A DNA stretch of 64,000 bases from Stigmatella aurantiaca DW4/3-1 (lineage in GTDB: Bacteria; Myxococcota; Myxococcia; Myxococcales; Myxococcaceae), in the NCBI RefSeq assembly GCF_000165485.1, contig NC_014623.1:1693501-1757500 (forward strand), read 5' to 3'. The notes below the pieces were generated by a model. It ran no database searches. It was not told the DNA's origin and worked only from the letters and a program-made list of their open reading frames with translations. Position 1 is the stretch's first letter. Every line of letters begins with the position of its first letter. Made by a program: the position numbers and the translations under genes. Below are positions 42,217-48,838 of the stretch, in pieces.

Positions 42217-42906
42217 TCAGAAGAAGTAAAGGAGGAACCCCAGCTTGACGGAGGGGCTGGTGAAGCGAAGGGACAAGGGCGTCGCGGTGACATCGGGGTC
42301 GTCCGTGACGTCCTGGAGCAGCGCTTCCGCGTCATCAATCGTGAGGGTGCTGTAGCTGAGGCCGACGCGCAGGAAGGCCGCGAAGCGGTTGGGGCTGCCG
42401 ATCTCCAGGCCCACGGTGGCACTCGCGTAGTCGTAGCCCACATCGTTGATGGGCGCGTCGGTCTGGAGGGGATTGCTGCCCAGCCGGTCGACGAGCTTGT
42501 TGTACTTGGCGCTGAAGTAATGGCCCACGTCCACGTTGAGGGAGGGGGAGACGAGGGTGGCCAGGGGCACCCAGCCCGCGCCCGCGCGCAGCCCGAGGCT
42601 CAGGGTATTCGACGTCACCCCGCCATGCAGCCGCAGCCACCGCACCGGCCGCACCACCGCGGAGACCCCCACGCCATCGGGAACGCCCGCATCCAGGGAG
42701 ATGCCGAGCATGGGCACGGAGGCCGTTGCGTCCGGCGAGGACGAGGCGTCCACGGATGGAGGGGGCAAGGCGTCCACGGCCGGATCGGGCGGGGGCAGGG
42801 TGTCCTGGGCCAGGGCGTCCCTGGCCATGCCCAGCATCAGCGCACAGGCCCAGGCCGGGCCGCGGCGAGACAGGGAGGGGGCGAGTCGGAGCATCAAGCG
42901 GGCCAT
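42217..42906 (-). CDS. outer-membrane beta-barrel hypothetical protein
   Basis: The 229-residue protein has a signal peptide (WACALMLGMARDALAQ), a Pro/Asp/Ala-rich spacer (about 35-65) and barrel strands such as VVRPVRWLRLHGGVTSNTLSLGLRAGA and SPSLNVDVGHYF, ending FLLYFF, a good C-terminal barrel signal. Function unknown. It heads a two-gene operon with the lipoprotein gene. Confidence 0.6.
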   Translation of the reverse strand: MARLMLRLAPSLSRRGPAWACALMLGMARDALAQDTLPPPDPAVDALPPPSVDASSSPDATASVPMLGISLDAGVPDGVGVSAVVRPVRWLRLHGGVTSNTLSLGLRAGAGWVPLATLVSPSLNVDVGHYFSAKYNKLVDRLGSNPLQTDAPINDVGYDYASATVGLEIGSPNRFAAFLRVGLSYSTLTIDDAEALLQDVTDDPDVTATPLSLRFTSPSVKLGFLLYFF

Positions 42907-43151
42907 TGCGCGAAGGGGGGCCCCATCATTCGTGGGCTCTCGCGGAAAGAGAAGTGGCTGCCGTCAAAAAAGGGCCGAGGGGTTCATCGGACGGTTCCGT
43001 TGCCAGGATGACGCGGCGTGGGCCCTCAGGGCAGGTGTTCCCGGCTGAGATTGATTGCAAGGTTGCCTGCCGTGTTTCACGTCTTCCTGGCGTTGCTGGA
43101 TGACGAAGGCCAGGGGGACTGGAGCGGCCTGTCATCGTCTGGAGGTGAGCA

Positions 43152-43625
43152 ATGGCTGAAGCCAAGGTCCTGAAGGTCCGGGACGAGGGCCCTCGCGCCG
43201 GAGCCCTGGCGGTTCCTTTTCGGGCATACAGTTTCAAGTTGCTCATGGGGGGCTCGGTGCAGGGGCACTTCGCCCAGTGCACGGGGCTGCGATCCCGGGT
43301 GGAGGTCATTCCACTCCGGGAGCAGGGGAGGACGGTGGTGCGCAAGCTCTCGGGCCCGTTGGGCTCGGGCTCCGTGTCGCTGAACTATGGCCTGAGCACC
43401 TCGTCCGAGCTGTGGGATTGGTTCCTGGCGTCGATGGAAGGACACGGCCAGAGCAAGACGGTCTCCATCCTGATGCTGGGGGTGGATGGCATCACCGAGG
43501 TGTTCCGTTACGAACTGCTGGAGTGTTGGCTTCGCGATTGGGAATGCGCGGCGGTCGATGCGCGCCGCCAGCAAGCTGCCCTCTCCCGGCTGGTCCTGTC
43601 CTTCGAGGCCATTCGCCGTGGGTGA
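43152..43625 (+). CDS. phage T4 gp19-like tail tube protein (contractile injection-type)
   Basis: The 157-residue protein matches the gp19/tail-tube family ('conserved hypothetical phage tail region', Hcp-like fold): GHFAQCTGLRSRVEVIPLREQG replaces the usual GxFxExSGLxxxxEvxxYREGG, followed by the RKLSG (RxLPG) turn and strand EVFRYELLECWLRDW. Tube proteins stack as hexamers forming the channel of contractile systems. ATG 43152 has a near-perfect GGAGGTGAG site. It heads a four-gene operon with baseplate-type genes but no sheath gene, so whether it makes a tube or another assembly is open. Confidence 0.8.
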   Translation: MAEAKVLKVRDEGPRAGALAVPFRAYSFKLLMGGSVQGHFAQCTGLRSRVEVIPLREQGRTVVRKLSGPLGSGSVSLNYGLSTSSELWDWFLASMEGHGQSKTVSILMLGVDGITEVFRYELLECWLRDWECAAVDARRQQAALSRLVLSFEAIRRG

Positions 43626-44250
43626 GCGCTTCAAGACCCCCTCGCGGAGTGTCCTGGTGCGCTCCATGGCGCTCAGGATGAAGGCGTGGGCGGAGGCCGT
43701 GCTCGAGGCCTCCACGCCGCCCGAGGAGGCCTCCCCCCAGGAGGCGAAGAGCCCTTCCCTCGCTCCCGTATCGCCCGCGCCGTCGCCGGCAGGCCCCCTC
43801 CGGGGAAGCGGGCCGCGGCTGTCCATGATGGAGGTGCCGGAACACTGGCTCCAGGATGTCCAGACGATGCAGGCGGGGGCGGCGAGGGTCTGGAGAGAGC
43901 GGGCCCGGAGCGCGAGGGAGGCCGCGGCCATGAAGTCCCGGCGCCCAACGTCCCTGGAGGGAGCGCCCCCCTTGCGCGATGTGACCCCCCCGCTTCGCCG
44001 GGGGCTGCGGACCGCGGCTTCCTCCGCGCCGGTGGGAACATCGTCGGTGCCCTGGCTGGAGGTGGTCTCCCACGGGGAGAACGGTGCCCAGGAGACGGCC
44101 CCGGCGGCCCGGAACGAGCGGTCCGCGGAGCCCATCTATCCCTGGCCCGAGCCGTCCGGGGAGGGCATTCCCGAGCCCCGGGACACGGTGGCCCTGCTTC
44201 ACCAGTGGGCGCGCTTGCGGTGGTTGGAACTGGAGCCGTGGGGCGAGTGA
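43618..44250 (+). CDS. hypothetical protein of tail-like operon
   Basis: The frame starts at GTG 43618, overlapping the tube gene by eight bases; ATG 43666 (MALRMKAWAEAV) is an alternative. The product has a disordered Pro/Ser-rich segment, a helical segment (VPEHWLQDVQTMQAGAARVWRE) and a C-terminal IYPWPEPSGEG ... LHQWARLRWLELEPWGE. The Trp/Pro motif followed by a basic-hydrophobic helix resembles the C-termini of small baseplate-associated proteins of injection systems, which I recall only loosely. Function is unknown; position suggests a tube-to-baseplate adaptor. Confidence 0.6.
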   Translation: MGERFKTPSRSVLVRSMALRMKAWAEAVLEASTPPEEASPQEAKSPSLAPVSPAPSPAGPLRGSGPRLSMMEVPEHWLQDVQTMQAGAARVWRERARSAREAAAMKSRRPTSLEGAPPLRDVTPPLRRGLRTAASSAPVGTSSVPWLEVVSHGENGAQETAPAARNERSAEPIYPWPEPSGEGIPEPRDTVALLHQWARLRWLELEPWGE

Positions 44251-44290
44251 CGGCCCGCGGTGGAATCTGAACCCGAGGAGAGTTTGCCCG

Positions 44291-46852
44291 ATGTCACTTC
44301 CGTCCCCCCATTTGGATGACCGCACCTTCAGGCAACTCCTGGAGGAGGCTCACCTGCGCATGGCCGGAAAGTGCCCGGAGTGGGCCTCGCTCGGCCCGCA
44401 TGATCCGGAGAAGGTGCTGTTGGAGGCCTTCGCCCACCTGACGGAGATGATGCTGCACCGGCTCAACCGTCTGCCGGAGAAGGCCTACGTGGAGTTTCTC
44501 CGGTTGCTGGGGGTGCGGCTTCAGCCACCCTCCGCCGCGGCGGTGGCGCTGCGCTTCAGCCTGGAGACTCCCGCCGAGTACCCGGTGGACATCCCTCGCG
44601 GCACGCGCGTCACCACGGCGCGGACGGAGGTGGGTGCCGAGCCGGTGGTGTTCACCACCGCCGAGGCAGGCCGCATCCTCCAGGGCGCCTCGGAGGTGAG
44701 GGTGCAGGCCTACCACTGCGAGCAGATCGACGCGGAGCGGGTGGGGTACGGCACGGGCCAGCCAGGGCTCACCGTGAAGGTCGCGCGGCCCCCGCTGATT
44801 GCCCCCACGGGAGATGGGCTGGATGTGGTGGTGGGCGTGGAGGCGGAACCCCACGAGTTGGATGGCCGCGCGCCGGCACGAAGGCACGAGGGCCGCCTCT
44901 ACCGCGTGTGGTGGGAGGTGGACGACTTCGCCTACCTGGCGCCCAACGAGCCCGCGTACCGGGTGGACCGGGCCACGGGCACCATCACCTTCGCGCCCGC
45001 GGCGCGAACCCTGGGGGACGAGGGAGGGCTGGGCGAGGCCCGGGCCCTGGCGGGCGTTCCTCCCGCGGGCCGGGCCATCCTCGTCTGGTACCGGCGCGGC
45101 GGGGGGACGTTGGGCAACGTCATCGCCCACAGCTTGGAGGTGCTCGAGGAGCCCATTGCCAGCGTGAAGGTGACCAATCCCCGTCCGGCCACGGGAGGCC
45201 GGGCCGCGGAGACGCTGGAGAATGCGCTGGTGCGCGGGCCTCAGGAGCGGCACTCCCTGCGGCGGGCCATCACCGCGGGGGACTTCGAGTTGCTGGCACA
45301 GCGCGCGTCGAGCGCGGTGGCGCGCGCCAAGGCGTTCACGTTGGCGCAGGCCTGGGCGCATGCGCCCGCCGGAACGGTGCAGGTGATGTTGGTGCCGCAC
45401 CTGCCCCCGGAGCTGCAAGGCTGTCATGGCGAAGGGGTAACGGCGGGGCGGCTGCGCAGGCACCAGGGCGAGGAGGTGCGGGCCCGGGTCCAACGGGAGC
45501 TGGAGGCGCGCCGCCCGTTGGGCACCGTGTGCCAGGTGGCCTGGGCCCGCTACAAGACCGTGAGCGTGGTGGCGCGCGTGGTGGCGCAGCCCACGGAGGA
45601 TGCGGAAGCCCTGAAGCTCCGCCTCCTGGAGCGGCTCTACCGGACGCTCTCGCCGCTGCCCTCGATGCTGCACCCGGGCGGGTGGGGCTTCGGGCAGCCG
45701 CTTCGCACGTCGCAACTCCGGGACCTCTTTCTGGCCGAACCCGGCGTCCGCGCGGTGGAGCGGGTGCGGGTGCGGGTGGACGAGGTGCCTCGCGAGGTCC
45801 GCGCGCTGGCGGCGGACGCCTCGCAACCCCGCACCTTTTATGCGGGGGGGGACGAGACGCTCTTCCGCTCCGGAAACGCGGGGGAGGGCTGGGAGCCCGT
45901 GGGGCGCTTCTCGGGGGAGCAGGTGGAGGTGGTGGAGGCGCATCCGTCCCGCGCGGGGTGGGTGGCGGTGGCGTCGCGGCTGCGGGGAGAGACGCCCACG
46001 CGCTCGCGCGTGTCCCTGTCACGCGACTGCTGTGAAACGTGGGAGCCGGCCACCGCCACATTGGACGAGGTGAAGGACCTGGCCTGGACGGTGCGGGAGG
46101 GCACGCCCGTGCTGTTCATCGCCACGGTGGCCGGGCTTTTCGAGTGGGTGCTCAAGCCGGGGACGGCGCCCCGTGCGGTGCTGGTGGACCCGGCGCAACC
46201 GGGGATGGGGTTTTGCGCGGTGGCCACGGCCTCCGACGTGGGCGGAGGGGTGTGCGTCGCGGTGGCGGCGATGGAGCAAGGGGGGGTCCTCTTGTCCGAT
46301 CAGGAGGGCCGTGCGGGCACCTTCTGGCACATCGGGCTGCGGGGACAGGGCGTGCGCGTGCTGGAGGTGCAGCGCGAGGGTCCGAACGCCTTCCTCTGGG
46401 CGGGGCTGGGGACGTTCCACGAGGAGGAGACCGGAGCGGGGTGCATGCGGTGGGAGCTGTCGGGGGGAGAGCCGCCTCCAGGCGGATGGCGTGCCTTCAA
46501 CGTGGGATGGGAGGGGGGGAGCTGCTTGTCCCTCGCCTTCGCCGGGGCCACGGTGCACGCGGGCACGCAATGGGCGGGGGTGCTGTCCCAGGAGGGGGGG
46601 CCAGGCCCCTCCGTGTGGCGGCGGCCGGAGGAGCATTCCCGCTCGCCCGTGTACGCCCTGGCGTCCCAAGGCGGTGGCTTCCCGGTGCTGTCGGGGCGTC
46701 CGAAGGGGGTGTTCCGCCGGTCCCGGGGCAGCGAATGCGACGAGCCCTGCTCGCAGTGGGAGTTCTCGGAGGAGGTGACGGTGCCGCCCACCTGGCTGCT
46801 GTGCTCCGGCTTCCATGAACTGGAAGTGGGAGGGGAAGATGAGGAGTGCTGA
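44291..46852 (+). CDS. baseplate J-like protein with C-terminal beta-propeller extension
   Basis: The 853-residue protein has the N-terminal pattern LDDRTFRQLLEEA, CPEWASLGPHDPEKVLLEAFAHLTEMMLHRLNRLPEKAYVEFL, diagnostic for the gp47/baseplate-J-type ('putative baseplate assembly') family, through about residue 535. From about 540 to 840 it continues with BNR/sortilin-like units (PRTFYAGGDETLFRSGNAGEGW, HPSRAGWVAV, TPVLFIATVAGLFEW), predicted as a beta-propeller. In phage and CIS, J-proteins make the baseplate wedge; the propeller may bind a surface partner or cap the complex. ATG 44291 follows GAGGAGAG. It overlaps the next gene by 14 bp. Confidence 0.78.
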   Translation: MSLPSPHLDDRTFRQLLEEAHLRMAGKCPEWASLGPHDPEKVLLEAFAHLTEMMLHRLNRLPEKAYVEFLRLLGVRLQPPSAAAVALRFSLETPAEYPVDIPRGTRVTTARTEVGAEPVVFTTAEAGRILQGASEVRVQAYHCEQIDAERVGYGTGQPGLTVKVARPPLIAPTGDGLDVVVGVEAEPHELDGRAPARRHEGRLYRVWWEVDDFAYLAPNEPAYRVDRATGTITFAPAARTLGDEGGLGEARALAGVPPAGRAILVWYRRGGGTLGNVIAHSLEVLEEPIASVKVTNPRPATGGRAAETLENALVRGPQERHSLRRAITAGDFELLAQRASSAVARAKAFTLAQAWAHAPAGTVQVMLVPHLPPELQGCHGEGVTAGRLRRHQGEEVRARVQRELEARRPLGTVCQVAWARYKTVSVVARVVAQPTEDAEALKLRLLERLYRTLSPLPSMLHPGGWGFGQPLRTSQLRDLFLAEPGVRAVERVRVRVDEVPREVRALAADASQPRTFYAGGDETLFRSGNAGEGWEPVGRFSGEQVEVVEAHPSRAGWVAVASRLRGETPTRSRVSLSRDCCETWEPATATLDEVKDLAWTVREGTPVLFIATVAGLFEWVLKPGTAPRAVLVDPAQPGMGFCAVATASDVGGGVCVAVAAMEQGGVLLSDQEGRAGTFWHIGLRGQGVRVLEVQREGPNAFLWAGLGTFHEEETGAGCMRWELSGGEPPPGGWRAFNVGWEGGSCLSLAFAGATVHAGTQWAGVLSQEGGPGPSVWRRPEEHSRSPVYALASQGGGFPVLSGRPKGVFRRSRGSECDEPCSQWEFSEEVTVPPTWLLCSGFHELEVGGEDEEC

Positions 46853-47363
46853 GCTGGTCCAGTTGCTGCCGGGGGTCTTCCAACAGGCCCCCCAGATGGG
46901 CCTCCGGCTGAAGGCGCTGCTGGATGCGATGGAGGGGTTCCACGCTCCCTCGGAAGCGGCGCTGGCGGAGGTGGATGCGCTCTTTGATCCACGCAGGACG
47001 CCGGATGGCTTCGTGTCCTTCCTGGCGCGCTGGATGGACCTGGAGTTGCCGGTGACGACGGGGCTGGGGCGGCTCAGGGAGCTGGTGGCGGCCGGGGCGG
47101 AGCTGTCCCAGTGGCGGGGGACGGCACGGGGCCTGCTGCTCTTCCTGTCCACGGCCACGGGCCGCCGGGACTTCGAGCTGGACGAGTGCGTCCTGGGGCC
47201 GGATGGGATTCCCCGGGCCTTTCACATCTGCCTTCGTGCCCCCGAGGAGCTGATGCCCCACCGCGCGCTGCTCGAGCAAATCATCCACCGCGAGAAGCCA
47301 GCCTACGTCACCTATGAGCTGCACTTCACGGCGACCGAGGCGGCCGGGCCGAGCGCCCCGTAA
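46839..47363 (+). CDS. phage tail protein I-like (gpI) protein
   Basis: The 174-residue protein starts LLPGVFQQA and carries the family signature LLDAMEGFHAPSEAALAEVDALFDPRRTPDGFVSFLARWMDL, then WRGTARGLLLFLSTATG. This is the short 'phage tail protein domain' partner that follows J-like proteins in contractile injection clusters. It would join the tube end to the baseplate. ATG 46839 has the ribosome site GGGAGGGGAAG; an upstream ATG at 46815 is less likely. Confidence 0.78.
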   Translation: MRSAELVQLLPGVFQQAPQMGLRLKALLDAMEGFHAPSEAALAEVDALFDPRRTPDGFVSFLARWMDLELPVTTGLGRLRELVAAGAELSQWRGTARGLLLFLSTATGRRDFELDECVLGPDGIPRAFHICLRAPEELMPHRALLEQIIHREKPAYVTYELHFTATEAAGPSAP

Positions 47364-47416: not shown

Positions 47417-48838
47417 GTGAAATACGCCTGGAGCATGTCCACCGCCGCGCTGCCCGACGCCTTCCTTCGAGCCATCTCCGAGGGCTTTCCCTCCGACTTC
47501 CTCACCCGTGAGCCAGGAGAACTGGCGGAGTACGGCAGGGACTGGACGCGTGTGCACACACCCGCGCCCGCGGCGGTGGCCCTGCCGCGCACCACGGACG
47601 AGGTGTCCCGGCTTCTGGCTTTGTGCCATGCGCATCAGGTGGCCGTGGTGCCCTCGGGCGGACGGACGGGGCTGGCGGCGGGCGCGGTGGCGGCCCGGGG
47701 CGAACTGGTGCTCTCTCTGCAGCGGATGAACCACATGGGCCCGGTGGATGTGCTGGGCAACACGGTGCGGGTGCAGGCGGGAGCGGTGACGGAGGCGGTG
47801 CACCAGCACTGCGCCCCGTATGGGCTGACGTGGCCGGTGGACTTCGCCTCCAAGGGGTCCAGCCATGTGGGCGGCAACATCGCCACCAACGCCGGGGGGG
47901 TGAAGGTCATCCGGTATGGGCTGACGCGCCAGTGGGTGCTGGGGCTCCAGGTGGTGACGGCGCAGGGGCAGGTGCTGGAGCTCAACGGCGCGCTGGAGAA
48001 GAACAACACGGGCATGGACTTGCGCCAGCTCTTCATCGGCAGCGAGGGCACGCTGGGGGTGATCACCGAGGCCACGCTCAAGCTGACGCGGCTGCCGGGC
48101 AAGCAGGAGGTGTTCCTCTTCGCGGTGCCGGACGTGGCGGCCGTGCTGAAGCTGTTCCGGGATGCGCGCCAGGCACCGCTGTTGATCTCCGCTTACGAGT
48201 TCTTCACGGACAAGTGCCTGGCGCGGGTGCAGCGCCACCGCAAGCTGCGCTCTCCCTTCGAGGCCCCCAGCGGGTGCTATGTGCTGCTGGAGGCGGAGGC
48301 CTCGGATGCGGCGGGCGTGGAGGCGTGGCTGGGCTCGCTCTTCGAGCGGGGGCTGGTGACGGACGGCACCCAGGCGCAAGGCGCCTCGCAGGCCGCGGAG
48401 CTATGGGCTCTGCGCGAGAGCATCAGCGAGAGCCTGTCGGCCACGGGCCTGCCGCACAAGAACGACATTTCGCTGCCCATCGCCGCGCTGGAGGCGTTCT
48501 GCGGGGAACTGGATGCGTTCTTCCTGGCGCGCTACCCGGACTGGGAGATCTGCCTCTTCGGACACATTGGCGACGGCAACCTGCACGTCAACGTGATGAA
48601 GCCAGACGCGATGGACAAGGGCGAGTTCCTGGCGCACACGAAGCCGGCGGACCACGACATCTTCGCGCTGGTGCGCAAGCACGCCGGCAGCATCTCCGCC
48701 GAGCACGGCATTGGCCTGCTGAAGAAGGACTACCTCTCGTATACGCGCGCCCCCGCGGAGCTGGAGTTGCTCCGGGCGCTCAAGCGGACGATGGATCCCG
48801 CCAACATCCTCAACCCGGGAAAGATCCTCGACCCGTGA
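47417..48838 (+). CDS. FAD-linked oxidase (GlcD/D-2-hydroxyglutarate dehydrogenase type)
   Basis: The 473-residue flavoprotein has the FAD-binding 4 domain (about 40-225: VVPSGGRTGLAAGAV, GSSHVGGNIATNAGG for FAD) and the FAD-oxidase C domain (HIGDGNLHVN with metal-binding His; EHGIGLLKKDY with His). It oxidises D-2-hydroxyacids (D-lactate, glycolate or D-2-hydroxyglutarate) at the inner membrane, passing electrons to quinone or an electron carrier. No iron-sulfur partner (GlcF) is adjacent, which fits the single-subunit D-2-hydroxyglutarate type. GTG 47417 and ATG 47435 are both possible starts. Confidence 0.88.
   Translation: MKYAWSMSTAALPDAFLRAISEGFPSDFLTREPGELAEYGRDWTRVHTPAPAAVALPRTTDEVSRLLALCHAHQVAVVPSGGRTGLAAGAVAARGELVLSLQRMNHMGPVDVLGNTVRVQAGAVTEAVHQHCAPYGLTWPVDFASKGSSHVGGNIATNAGGVKVIRYGLTRQWVLGLQVVTAQGQVLELNGALEKNNTGMDLRQLFIGSEGTLGVITEATLKLTRLPGKQEVFLFAVPDVAAVLKLFRDARQAPLLISAYEFFTDKCLARVQRHRKLRSPFEAPSGCYVLLEAEASDAAGVEAWLGSLFERGLVTDGTQAQGASQAAELWALRESISESLSATGLPHKNDISLPIAALEAFCGELDAFFLARYPDWEICLFGHIGDGNLHVNVMKPDAMDKGEFLAHTKPADHDIFALVRKHAGSISAEHGIGLLKKDYLSYTRAPAELELLRALKRTMDPANILNPGKILDP

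What the first reader, a model, noticed from the sequence alone, without database searches (positions are those of the whole stretch)
43152..47363. Orphan four-gene tail-like operon: tube, linker, J-propeller and gpI without sheath or spike
Tail tube, baseplate-J and gpI families normally sit in clusters of 10-20 genes with sheath, VgrG spike, LysM and AAA+ genes. Here both flanks are ordinary chromosomal genes and only four tightly packed genes are present (overlaps of 8 and 14 bp, perfect ribosome site at the head). This is either a decayed contractile injection system, a satellite locus completing one elsewhere, or a minimal non-contractile assembly using a tube with a propeller-tipped baseplate. 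All four frames are intact, which argues against simple decay.
Basis: partly seen in the sequence, partly recalled or inferred. Interest (0 to 1): 0.8.

Follow-up and report, generated by a model that had tools for sequence, protein, structure and literature searches.

The report
Stripped injection machine kept by selection
Four neighbouring genes are what remains of a twelve-gene phage-tail-like injection machine that lost its contractile sheath and spike in the ancestor of four myxobacterial species, yet the remaining parts have been kept intact by natural selection, which suggests they now do a different, unknown job.

Summary
The four genes are real and intact: tube (43152-43625), linker (43618-44250), baseplate-J with a propeller (44291-46852), gpI (46839-47363). 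They are a stripped remnant of a compact 12-gene contractile injection system (CIS). In 17 related genomes J and gpI orthologs sit in the full cluster (cap-like protein, sheath, tube, linker, LysM, VgrG, 113-aa, gp25, J, gpI, two further genes), and the flanking genes mark one orthologous site. The core genes recur together in 37 of 39 sufficiently long named loci from several phyla. The window species and three congeners share one reduced form with a homologous linker-J junction; another congener is gutted at the site. Codon models give omega 0.06-0.15 on the reduced lineages and reject neutrality; no nonsense change is seen where about 29 would be expected. Two of the four species have no phage/eCIS-type sheath; all seven genomes of the genus do have a type VI sheath. 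J and gpI keep most universally conserved residues; the tube and the inferred gp25-docking end of J changed. Best reading: a sheathless, spikeless CIS remnant kept for a non-injection role. The function is untested.

The parts
43016..43105 (.). Conserved upstream block, probable promoter or regulatory region of the reduced operon
   Evidence: 22-24 of 25 positions invariant in all four reduced genomes in five windows over 43028-43100, against 2, 1 and 10 of 25 in three windows over 42957-43004; next-best place in the genome E 0.45; no sigma-70 consensus; no Rfam family
43141..43145 (+). Shine-Dalgarno GGAGG
   Evidence: read in sequence
43152..43625 (+). Tube protein (gp19/Hcp-like fold), 157 aa
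   Evidence: PF06841, TIGR02241; AlphaFold mean pLDDT 86, best Foldseek hits are PVC/AFP/AlgoCIS tubes
43618..44250 (+). Linker, 210 aa: N-terminal motif VLVRSMALRMKAWAEAVLE, middle motif PEHWLQDVQTMQAGAA, C-terminal motif TVALLHQWARLRWLELEPWGE; the rest is variable
   Evidence: motifs read by eye; full-cluster counterparts in the same position mostly 340-450 aa
44251..44290 (+). Junction left by the loss of LysM, VgrG, 113-aa and gp25 genes; homologous in all four reduced genomes
44291..46852 (+). Baseplate-J (Afp11/gp6-like wedge protein) with C-terminal propeller, 853 aa
   Evidence: TIGR02243, PF04865; model; Foldseek top hit is a chain of the Streptomyces coelicolor CIS baseplate, 9gtp
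44291..44530 (+). N-terminal helices of J (residues 1-80), inferred 'core bundle' on which gp25 docks in other CIS; holds 4 of the 7 conserved residues changed in all four reduced proteins
   Evidence: core-bundle role from passages of PMC10457771 and PMC8894135; model confidence is modest here (blocks 39-76)
45785..46756 (+). Beta-propeller, J residues 499-822
46839..47363 (+). gpI-like wedge/adaptor protein, 174 aa
   Evidence: TIGR02242, PF09684 (run from 46815)
42217..42906 (-). Upstream flank (weak beta-barrel match); marks the orthologous site
47417..48838 (+). Downstream flank (FAD-linked oxidase); marks the orthologous site

Best explanation
The operon is a reduced contractile injection system. 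Its ancestor was a compact 12-gene CIS, probably cytoplasmic and docked to the membrane through a bitopic protein encoded just after gpI (inferred). In the ancestor of four species the cap-like protein, sheath, LysM adaptor, VgrG spike, 113-aa protein, gp25 and the two genes after gpI were lost; tube, linker, J-propeller and gpI stayed (shown by comparison). On its own, what remains cannot contract or puncture (follows from the missing parts). It has been kept by purifying selection since (shown). Most likely mechanism (inferred): J and gpI still join through their N-terminal helices into wedge or ring subcomplexes, carrying the propeller as a binding face; the altered tube protein forms rings or short tubes tied to them by the linker; the whole acts as a static cytosolic scaffold or binding platform rather than an injector. 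Which partner the propeller binds is unknown.
For: Same site, full cluster in relatives; all eight core genes in 37 of 39 long named loci. Homologous junction in all four reduced genomes. Zero nonsense changes against at least 28.9 (G000-G077) and 11.5 (G078-G079) expected under neutrality. Codon ML omega (full clusters / G000+G077 / G078+G079): J 0.083/0.077/0.144; tube 0.156/0.056/0.152; gpI 0.096/0.071/0.152. Fixing omega at 1 on the G000/G077 branches costs 190, 40 and 48 lnL units, on the G078/G079 branches 71, 13 and 13 (J, tube, gpI). Operon kept in G078 and G079 with no PF17482 sheath, and in G079 also no PF04717 spike domain. J keeps 203 of 217 and gpI 36 of 43 residues conserved in full clusters, tube only 21 of 35: the wedge is kept more strictly than the tube. 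Four of 7 J residues changed in all four species lie in residues 32-56, where gp25 docks in other CIS. Conserved upstream block. Linker keeps three short motifs while the rest turns over.
Against: No expression, assembly or phenotype was tested. The lineages without an eCIS-type sheath (G078/G079) evolve faster (J omega 0.144 against 0.077; NG86 0.47, propeller alone 0.70): above 6 of 7 flanking genes, which slow decay would also give. The J stem omega is raised (0.206); the stem covers time before and after the loss. Part of the tube's change may not be due to the loss: the full-cluster tube of G081 shares some of it, and tubes evolve fast in some full clusters (NG86 0.70 for G080-G081). A type VI sheath exists in all four genomes, so the proteins could have a contractile partner. 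The four proteins may act singly. Only seven genomes of the genus are held.
Confidence: 0.52

Rival explanations
1. A slowly decaying remnant: the machine is dead, and the four genes are still open by chance or because of leftover constraint.
For: Raised omega on the stem (J 0.206, tube 0.331) and in G078/G079 (J 0.144; NG86 propeller 0.70); linker evolves fast (NG86 0.43-0.99); a congener, G082, is gutted at the same site.
Against: Omega of 1 rejected for the G000/G077 and G078/G079 branches in J, tube and gpI; no stop in 1,395 codons against about 29 expected; conserved upstream block; G000/G077 are as constrained as full clusters.
Confidence: 0.2
2. A satellite that supplies alternative tube, baseplate or propeller parts to another contractile machine of the cell: the classical eCIS (G000, G077) or the type VI system (all four genomes).
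For: A 96%-identical eCIS sheath exists in G000 and G077, where constraint is tightest; a type VI sheath and nearby gp25-family gene exist in all four.
Against: G078 and G079 keep the operon with no PF17482 sheath at E 0.1; the eCIS of G000 encodes its own two tubes, LysM, VgrG, gp25, baseplate-J proteins, AAA+ and tape measure; the type VI locus is equally present in G080-G082, whatever the state of this site.
Confidence: 0.15
3. A dominant-negative or decoy remnant: wedge and tube subunits that poison assembly of sister CIS of the same compact family, or bind its effectors.
For: J and gpI are kept while sheath, spike and firing parts are gone; sister species G080, G081 carry the full machine.
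Against: If the ancestral machine fires from inside its own cell, subunits in another cell would not meet it; no direct evidence.
Confidence: 0.08
4. A new minimal non-contractile injector: tube plus propeller-tipped baseplate that works without sheath or spike.
For: Tube and wedge are precisely what is kept.
Against: No spike or membrane-protein gene of the ancestral set remains at the site and none of the four proteins has a hydrophobic segment; tube has changed 8 of 35 conserved residues in all four species; no energy source for injection.
Confidence: 0.05

Closest known systems
Compact 12-gene CIS in Archangium, Myxococcus, Pyxidicoccus and named loci of other phyla
   Same: Orthologous J-propeller, gpI, tube and linker; same relative order and overlaps; same chromosomal site in G080, G081, G083 and G048
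   Different: Eight of twelve genes absent, including sheath, spike, gp25 and the two genes after gpI
Streptomyces coelicolor CIS (CISSc, type IId eCIS) with membrane adaptor CisA
   Same: Best Foldseek match of J is its baseplate (9gtp); the ancestral cluster encodes a bitopic protein just after the baseplate genes, as CisA is (passages of PMC12237407)
   Different: Reduced operon has lost that gene, sheath and spike; J carries a propeller; homology of the bitopic protein to CisA was not tested
Classical eCIS (Afp, PVC, AlgoCIS) and the classical eCIS of this genome
   Same: Tube fold and wedge proteins
   Different: The eCIS of this genome has AAA+, tape measure and effectors; the operon has none
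Orphan hcp/vgrG/PAAR islands of type VI secretion (PMC13098142, seen only as search listing)
   Same: Partial sets of CIS parts away from a complete cluster
   Different: Here the kept parts are wedge, tube and linker, without a spike

Membership tests
Contractile injection system (complete) | Sheath protein encoded in the locus | tested here: not met
   tblastn of sheath against the reduced sites; in G000 PF17482 and PF04984 find only the distant eCIS above cut-off; PF17482 finds none in G078/G079
Contractile injection system (complete) | Spike (VgrG) and gp25 encoded in the locus | tested here: not met
Compact 12-gene CIS lineage (descent) | Orthologous J-propeller, gpI, tube and linker in the same relative order | tested here: met
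   linker similarity to full-cluster copies by BLAST is weak, and by end motifs elsewhere
Compact 12-gene CIS lineage (descent) | Same chromosomal site as full clusters | tested here: met
   flanks in G080, G081 (two contigs), G083 and, more weakly, G048
Compact 12-gene CIS lineage (descent) | Bitopic membrane protein after gpI | tested here: not met
   absent at the reduced sites; one hydrophobic segment in each of the 6 full-cluster copies checked
Pseudogene remnant | Neutral evolution, disabling mutations | tested here: not met
Satellite of the classical eCIS | Present only where an eCIS-type sheath is present | tested here: not met
   G078 and G079
Satellite of the type VI system | Occurrence linked to the type VI sheath | tested here: inconclusive
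   VipB in 7 of 7 genomes of the genus, so no contrast is available
Sheathless assembled particle | Physical complex of the four proteins | not testable with these tools
   needs purification or cryo-EM
Anti-phage defence system | Match to a PADLOC model | tested here: inconclusive
   0 of 4 proteins match; a missing match excludes nothing

The most novel reading that the evidence does not exclude
A contractile injection system stripped of sheath, spike and membrane anchor and exapted as a whole: the wedge (J-propeller, gpI), linker and a re-tuned tube form a static cytosolic ring or scaffold with a non-injection job, a kind of CIS derivative that I did not meet in the literature searches made here.
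Probability: 0.38. Interest if true: 0.75.

Novelty: new variant of a known kind. Interest (0 to 1): 0.57.

Why it matters
It is a natural experiment in which a phage-tail-like injector has lost the parts that make it inject, while selection has kept the rest. Within one small genus the same site is found full, stripped and gutted, so the question whether CIS baseplates and tubes can have duties apart from injection becomes directly testable by deleting four genes. It also points to a compact CIS lineage, found in several phyla, with a bitopic protein encoded where Streptomyces encodes CisA.

Tried and rejected
Rejected: tail remnant of a prophage. The two phage-tail-like regions of the genome are elsewhere (tape-measure, tube and J families and a below-cut-off sheath match in the first), and the full-cluster relatives carry a CIS gene set in a recurring order.

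Rejected: the propeller as an adaptation to being sheathless. The region aligns through in the 9 full-cluster rows and the 28 other rows.

Tested, not diagnostic: loss of the conserved Glu near the C-terminus of the tube. The full-cluster tube of G081 has lost it too.

Led nowhere: sigma-70 promoter scan (0 sites); Rfam (0); PADLOC (0 of 4); first genome-contig scan with the single protein (no relative); literature searches for sheathless or incomplete CIS and for TIGR02241-3. VIA-align rows concern the propeller only; the rest of J was judged from Foldseek.

Mended on re-check: I had first written that G078 and G079 have no sheath anywhere. One search shows a type VI (VipB) sheath in all seven genomes, so the statement is limited to phage/eCIS-type sheaths; the satellite reading went from 0.12 to 0.15, the best explanation from 0.55 to 0.52 and the novel case from 0.40 to 0.38.

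Weak spots. The J model with omega fixed at 1 on the stem did not finish (time limit), and J was fitted with at most 60 iterations; a 7-taxon refit gave similar values. In one search the gpI stem estimate ran to its bound and some control-gene stems are unreliable. One search mixed alignments between parallel jobs and is discarded; one search replaces it. In one search many myxobacterial clusters enter two or three times (seed loci, G handles, named records), so 75, 71 and 72 sequences are not independent genomes; A3 (29 rows) separately lists D33 and G40 among nearly invariant columns. Fisher P values ignore shared ancestry; tube against gpI gave P = 0.056. Gene order was read by eye, and several rows hold overlapping spurious frames. 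The linker search found a seed in 9 of 13 loci. Of the 59 genomes with a match, 37 have only more distant matches; I looked at part of these (20 stretches, HMMs) and did not search them all for a four-gene form.

Full report
What is there. The window is G000:C1:1693501-1757500 of a 10.26 Mb single-contig genome. AlphaFold gives the tube a gp19/Hcp-like fold closest to PVC, AFP and AlgoCIS tubes. J is a baseplate wedge protein whose best Foldseek match is the Streptomyces coelicolor CIS baseplate, followed by a propeller at residues 499-822 that matches seven-bladed WD40-type structures. The linker has no family; it has N-terminal, middle and C-terminal motifs and a variable rest.

Where it comes from. 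A search of 145 genomes of the order gave matches in 59 (E 1e-10): J-propeller orthologs in 22 (full length in 21; one, G102, cut by a contig end) and more distant matches in 37. Flanks of 20 of the orthologs were fetched, G102, and genes called. Seventeen of the 22 have the full cluster: cap-like 227 aa (weak Pvc16_N), sheath about 400 aa, tube, linker about 400 aa, LysM/CIS_tube, VgrG, 113 aa, gp25, J, gpI, a protein of about 350 aa and one of about 160 aa (domains). In G081 the last two genes lie on another contig. Four genomes, all in the window's genus (G000, G077, G078, G079), have only tube, linker, J and gpI. The flanking genes show one orthologous site: UP1 (42217-42906) and the FAD oxidase (47417-48838) flank the full cluster in G080, G081 (on two contigs), G083 and, with weaker UP1 similarity and extra genes, G048. 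In G082, of the same genus, the site holds only a piece of the cap-like gene, with exonuclease VII genes beside it. tblastn at E 0.01 with G080 proteins finds no piece of the eight missing genes at the four reduced sites. The linker-J junction is homologous in all four, so the loss there happened once, before they split.

A wider compact family. A scan with the J alignment gave 47 named loci, in records labelled Myxococcota members, Gemmatimonadetes, Gamma- and Alphaproteobacteria, Desulfobacteraceae/Desulfuromonadales, Chloroflexi, Actinomycetes, Planctomycetes and Nitrospiraceae. Of 39 loci with enough flanking DNA, 37 hold all eight core genes, in the same order as read by eye; the exceptions are L109 (gpI not found) and L136 (truncated J, no sheath found). 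None of the 37 shows the four-gene form. The protein after gpI has one transmembrane-like segment near residue 130 in the 6 copies checked; the part after it is Cys-rich in the 3 myxobacterial copies and has PASTA repeats in the Gemmatimonadetes record. The 160-aa protein has an N-terminal hydrophobic segment in the one copy checked. In S. [quoted passage not shown] I infer that the ancestral machine was cytoplasmic and membrane-docked; this is not shown.

Is the remnant dead? Between G000 and G077 there are 280 synonymous differences over the four genes; at the sequence's own ratio of stop-making to synonymous changes at least 28.9 nonsense changes would be expected if neutral, and none is seen. 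For G078-G079: 11.5 expected, none seen. Codon ML on 15 taxa: J omega is 0.083 in full clusters, 0.077 in G000/G077, 0.144 in G078/G079 and 0.206 on the stem of the reduced clade; four classes beat one by 20 lnL units. Fixing omega at 1 costs 190 lnL units for G000/G077 and 71 for G078/G079. Tube: 0.156, 0.056, 0.152, stem 0.331; gpI: 0.096, 0.071, 0.152, stem 0.169. Seven flanking genes give 0.02-0.12 in G000/G077 and 0.035-0.16 in G078/G079. So constraint was weaker on the stem, is full in G000/G077 and partly relaxed in G078/G079. Pairwise NG86 values say the same more coarsely, with the propeller of G078-G079 at 0.70 and the linker near 0.9-1.0. These results count against strict constraint in G078/G079. 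An upstream block at about 43028-43100 is almost invariant in the four genomes, which suggests kept regulation.

Does it serve another machine? G000 carries a classical eCIS with AAA+, tape measure, Ntox11 and eCIS_core proteins; G077 has a 96%-identical sheath with VgrG and gp25 hits close by. G078 and G079 (99% complete) have no PF17482 sheath at E 0.1; G079 also has no PF04717 spike domain. So the operon persists where no eCIS-type machine was found. But a type VI sheath (VipB) is present in all seven genomes of the genus, with a gp25-family gene about 3 kb away in the four reduced ones. As it is there whether this site is full, reduced or gutted, it neither supports nor excludes a link. 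That constraint is tighter where the eCIS is present is a weak hint for the satellite reading (two lineages only).

What has changed in it. Of columns at least 90% conserved in full clusters, all four reduced proteins keep 203 of 217 in J and 36 of 43 in gpI, but 21 of 35 in the tube; changed in all four are 7, 3 and 8 (tube against J, Fisher P = 0.0002; tube against gpI, P = 0.056). Four of the seven J changes (T32, D33, G40, Y56) fall in the N-terminal helices, 4 of 38 conserved columns against 3 of 179 in the rest (P = 0.019). In phage XM1 and AlgoCIS this kind of helical region forms the core bundle on which the gp25 protein sits (passages in PMC10457771 and PMC8894135). gp25 is one of the lost genes. 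The inference is that J and gpI still pair, that J no longer needs to hold gp25, and that the tube no longer meets its old sheath. Against the last point, the full-cluster tube of G081 shares part of the tube's changes.

How it most likely works. Shown: descent, loss, retention under selection, which residues are kept. Inferred: J and gpI assemble as wedges or a ring, with the propeller as the binding face; linker and tube associate with them; the product is static and cytosolic. Unknown: partner, condition, phenotype. I put 0.52 on exaptation as a non-injection scaffold or binding platform, 0.2 on slow decay, 0.15 on service to another contractile machine of the cell.

Known or new. Literature was seen only as search listings and passages (listings; passages). 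PMC12923769 (passages) describes eCIS types that use Tail_P2_I adaptors instead of Afp12, which fits the ancestral cluster; none of the listings showed a sheathless CIS remnant kept by selection. I rate it a new variant of a known kind.

Noticed in passing
L095-L141, L056, L068 and others: A compact CIS with recurring 12-gene order in several phyla has a bitopic protein after gpI whose outer part differs by lineage (Cys-rich in 3 myxobacterial copies, PASTA repeats in a Gemmatimonadetes record), placed where Streptomyces encodes CisA; a candidate family of envelope adaptors.
   Followed up: partly
G000:C1:1866239-1891763 (L002, L003): Classical eCIS with AAA+ ATPase, 1,456-aa tape measure, an Ntox11 protein and an eCIS_core protein; in the genus only G000 and G077 have its close sheath.
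   Followed up: partly
G000:C1:3066000-3098000 and 3168000-3200000 (L017-L020): Two similar phage-tail-like regions about 100 kb apart, many of whose called proteins start alike; the gene at the sheath position differs in length (289 aa with a weak sheath match, 738 aa with none).
   Followed up: partly
L155 (G082 C40:8000-27000): The same CIS site in a congener is gutted: a piece of the cap-like gene remains, with exonuclease VII large and small subunit genes next to it.
   Followed up: yes
L136 (Nitrospiraceae bin1476 chromosome): J is truncated to 334 aa with gp25 and the 113-aa protein upstream and no sheath found: a possible independent decay or an assembly fault.
   Followed up: no
L073-L078 (f2 and other families of the order): Long J proteins (about 975-1,169 aa in five of the six stretches) with gpI and gp25 homologs; the sheath HMM hit in only one of the six stretches (L077). 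Some contigs end early.
   Followed up: no
G000:C1:2238115-2241604, G077:C2:7971772, G078:C9:263310, G079:C5:326322: A type VI sheath with a gp25-family gene about 3 kb away in all four reduced genomes, yet G079 has no PF04717 spike-domain match at E 0.1: a type VI locus apparently without a standard VgrG.
   Followed up: no
window 43618-44250 and full-cluster linkers: The gene between tube and LysM is in many loci examined a Pro/Ala/Arg-rich protein with a C-terminal motif near EQRG; role unknown, perhaps a tape-measure substitute.
   Followed up: partly
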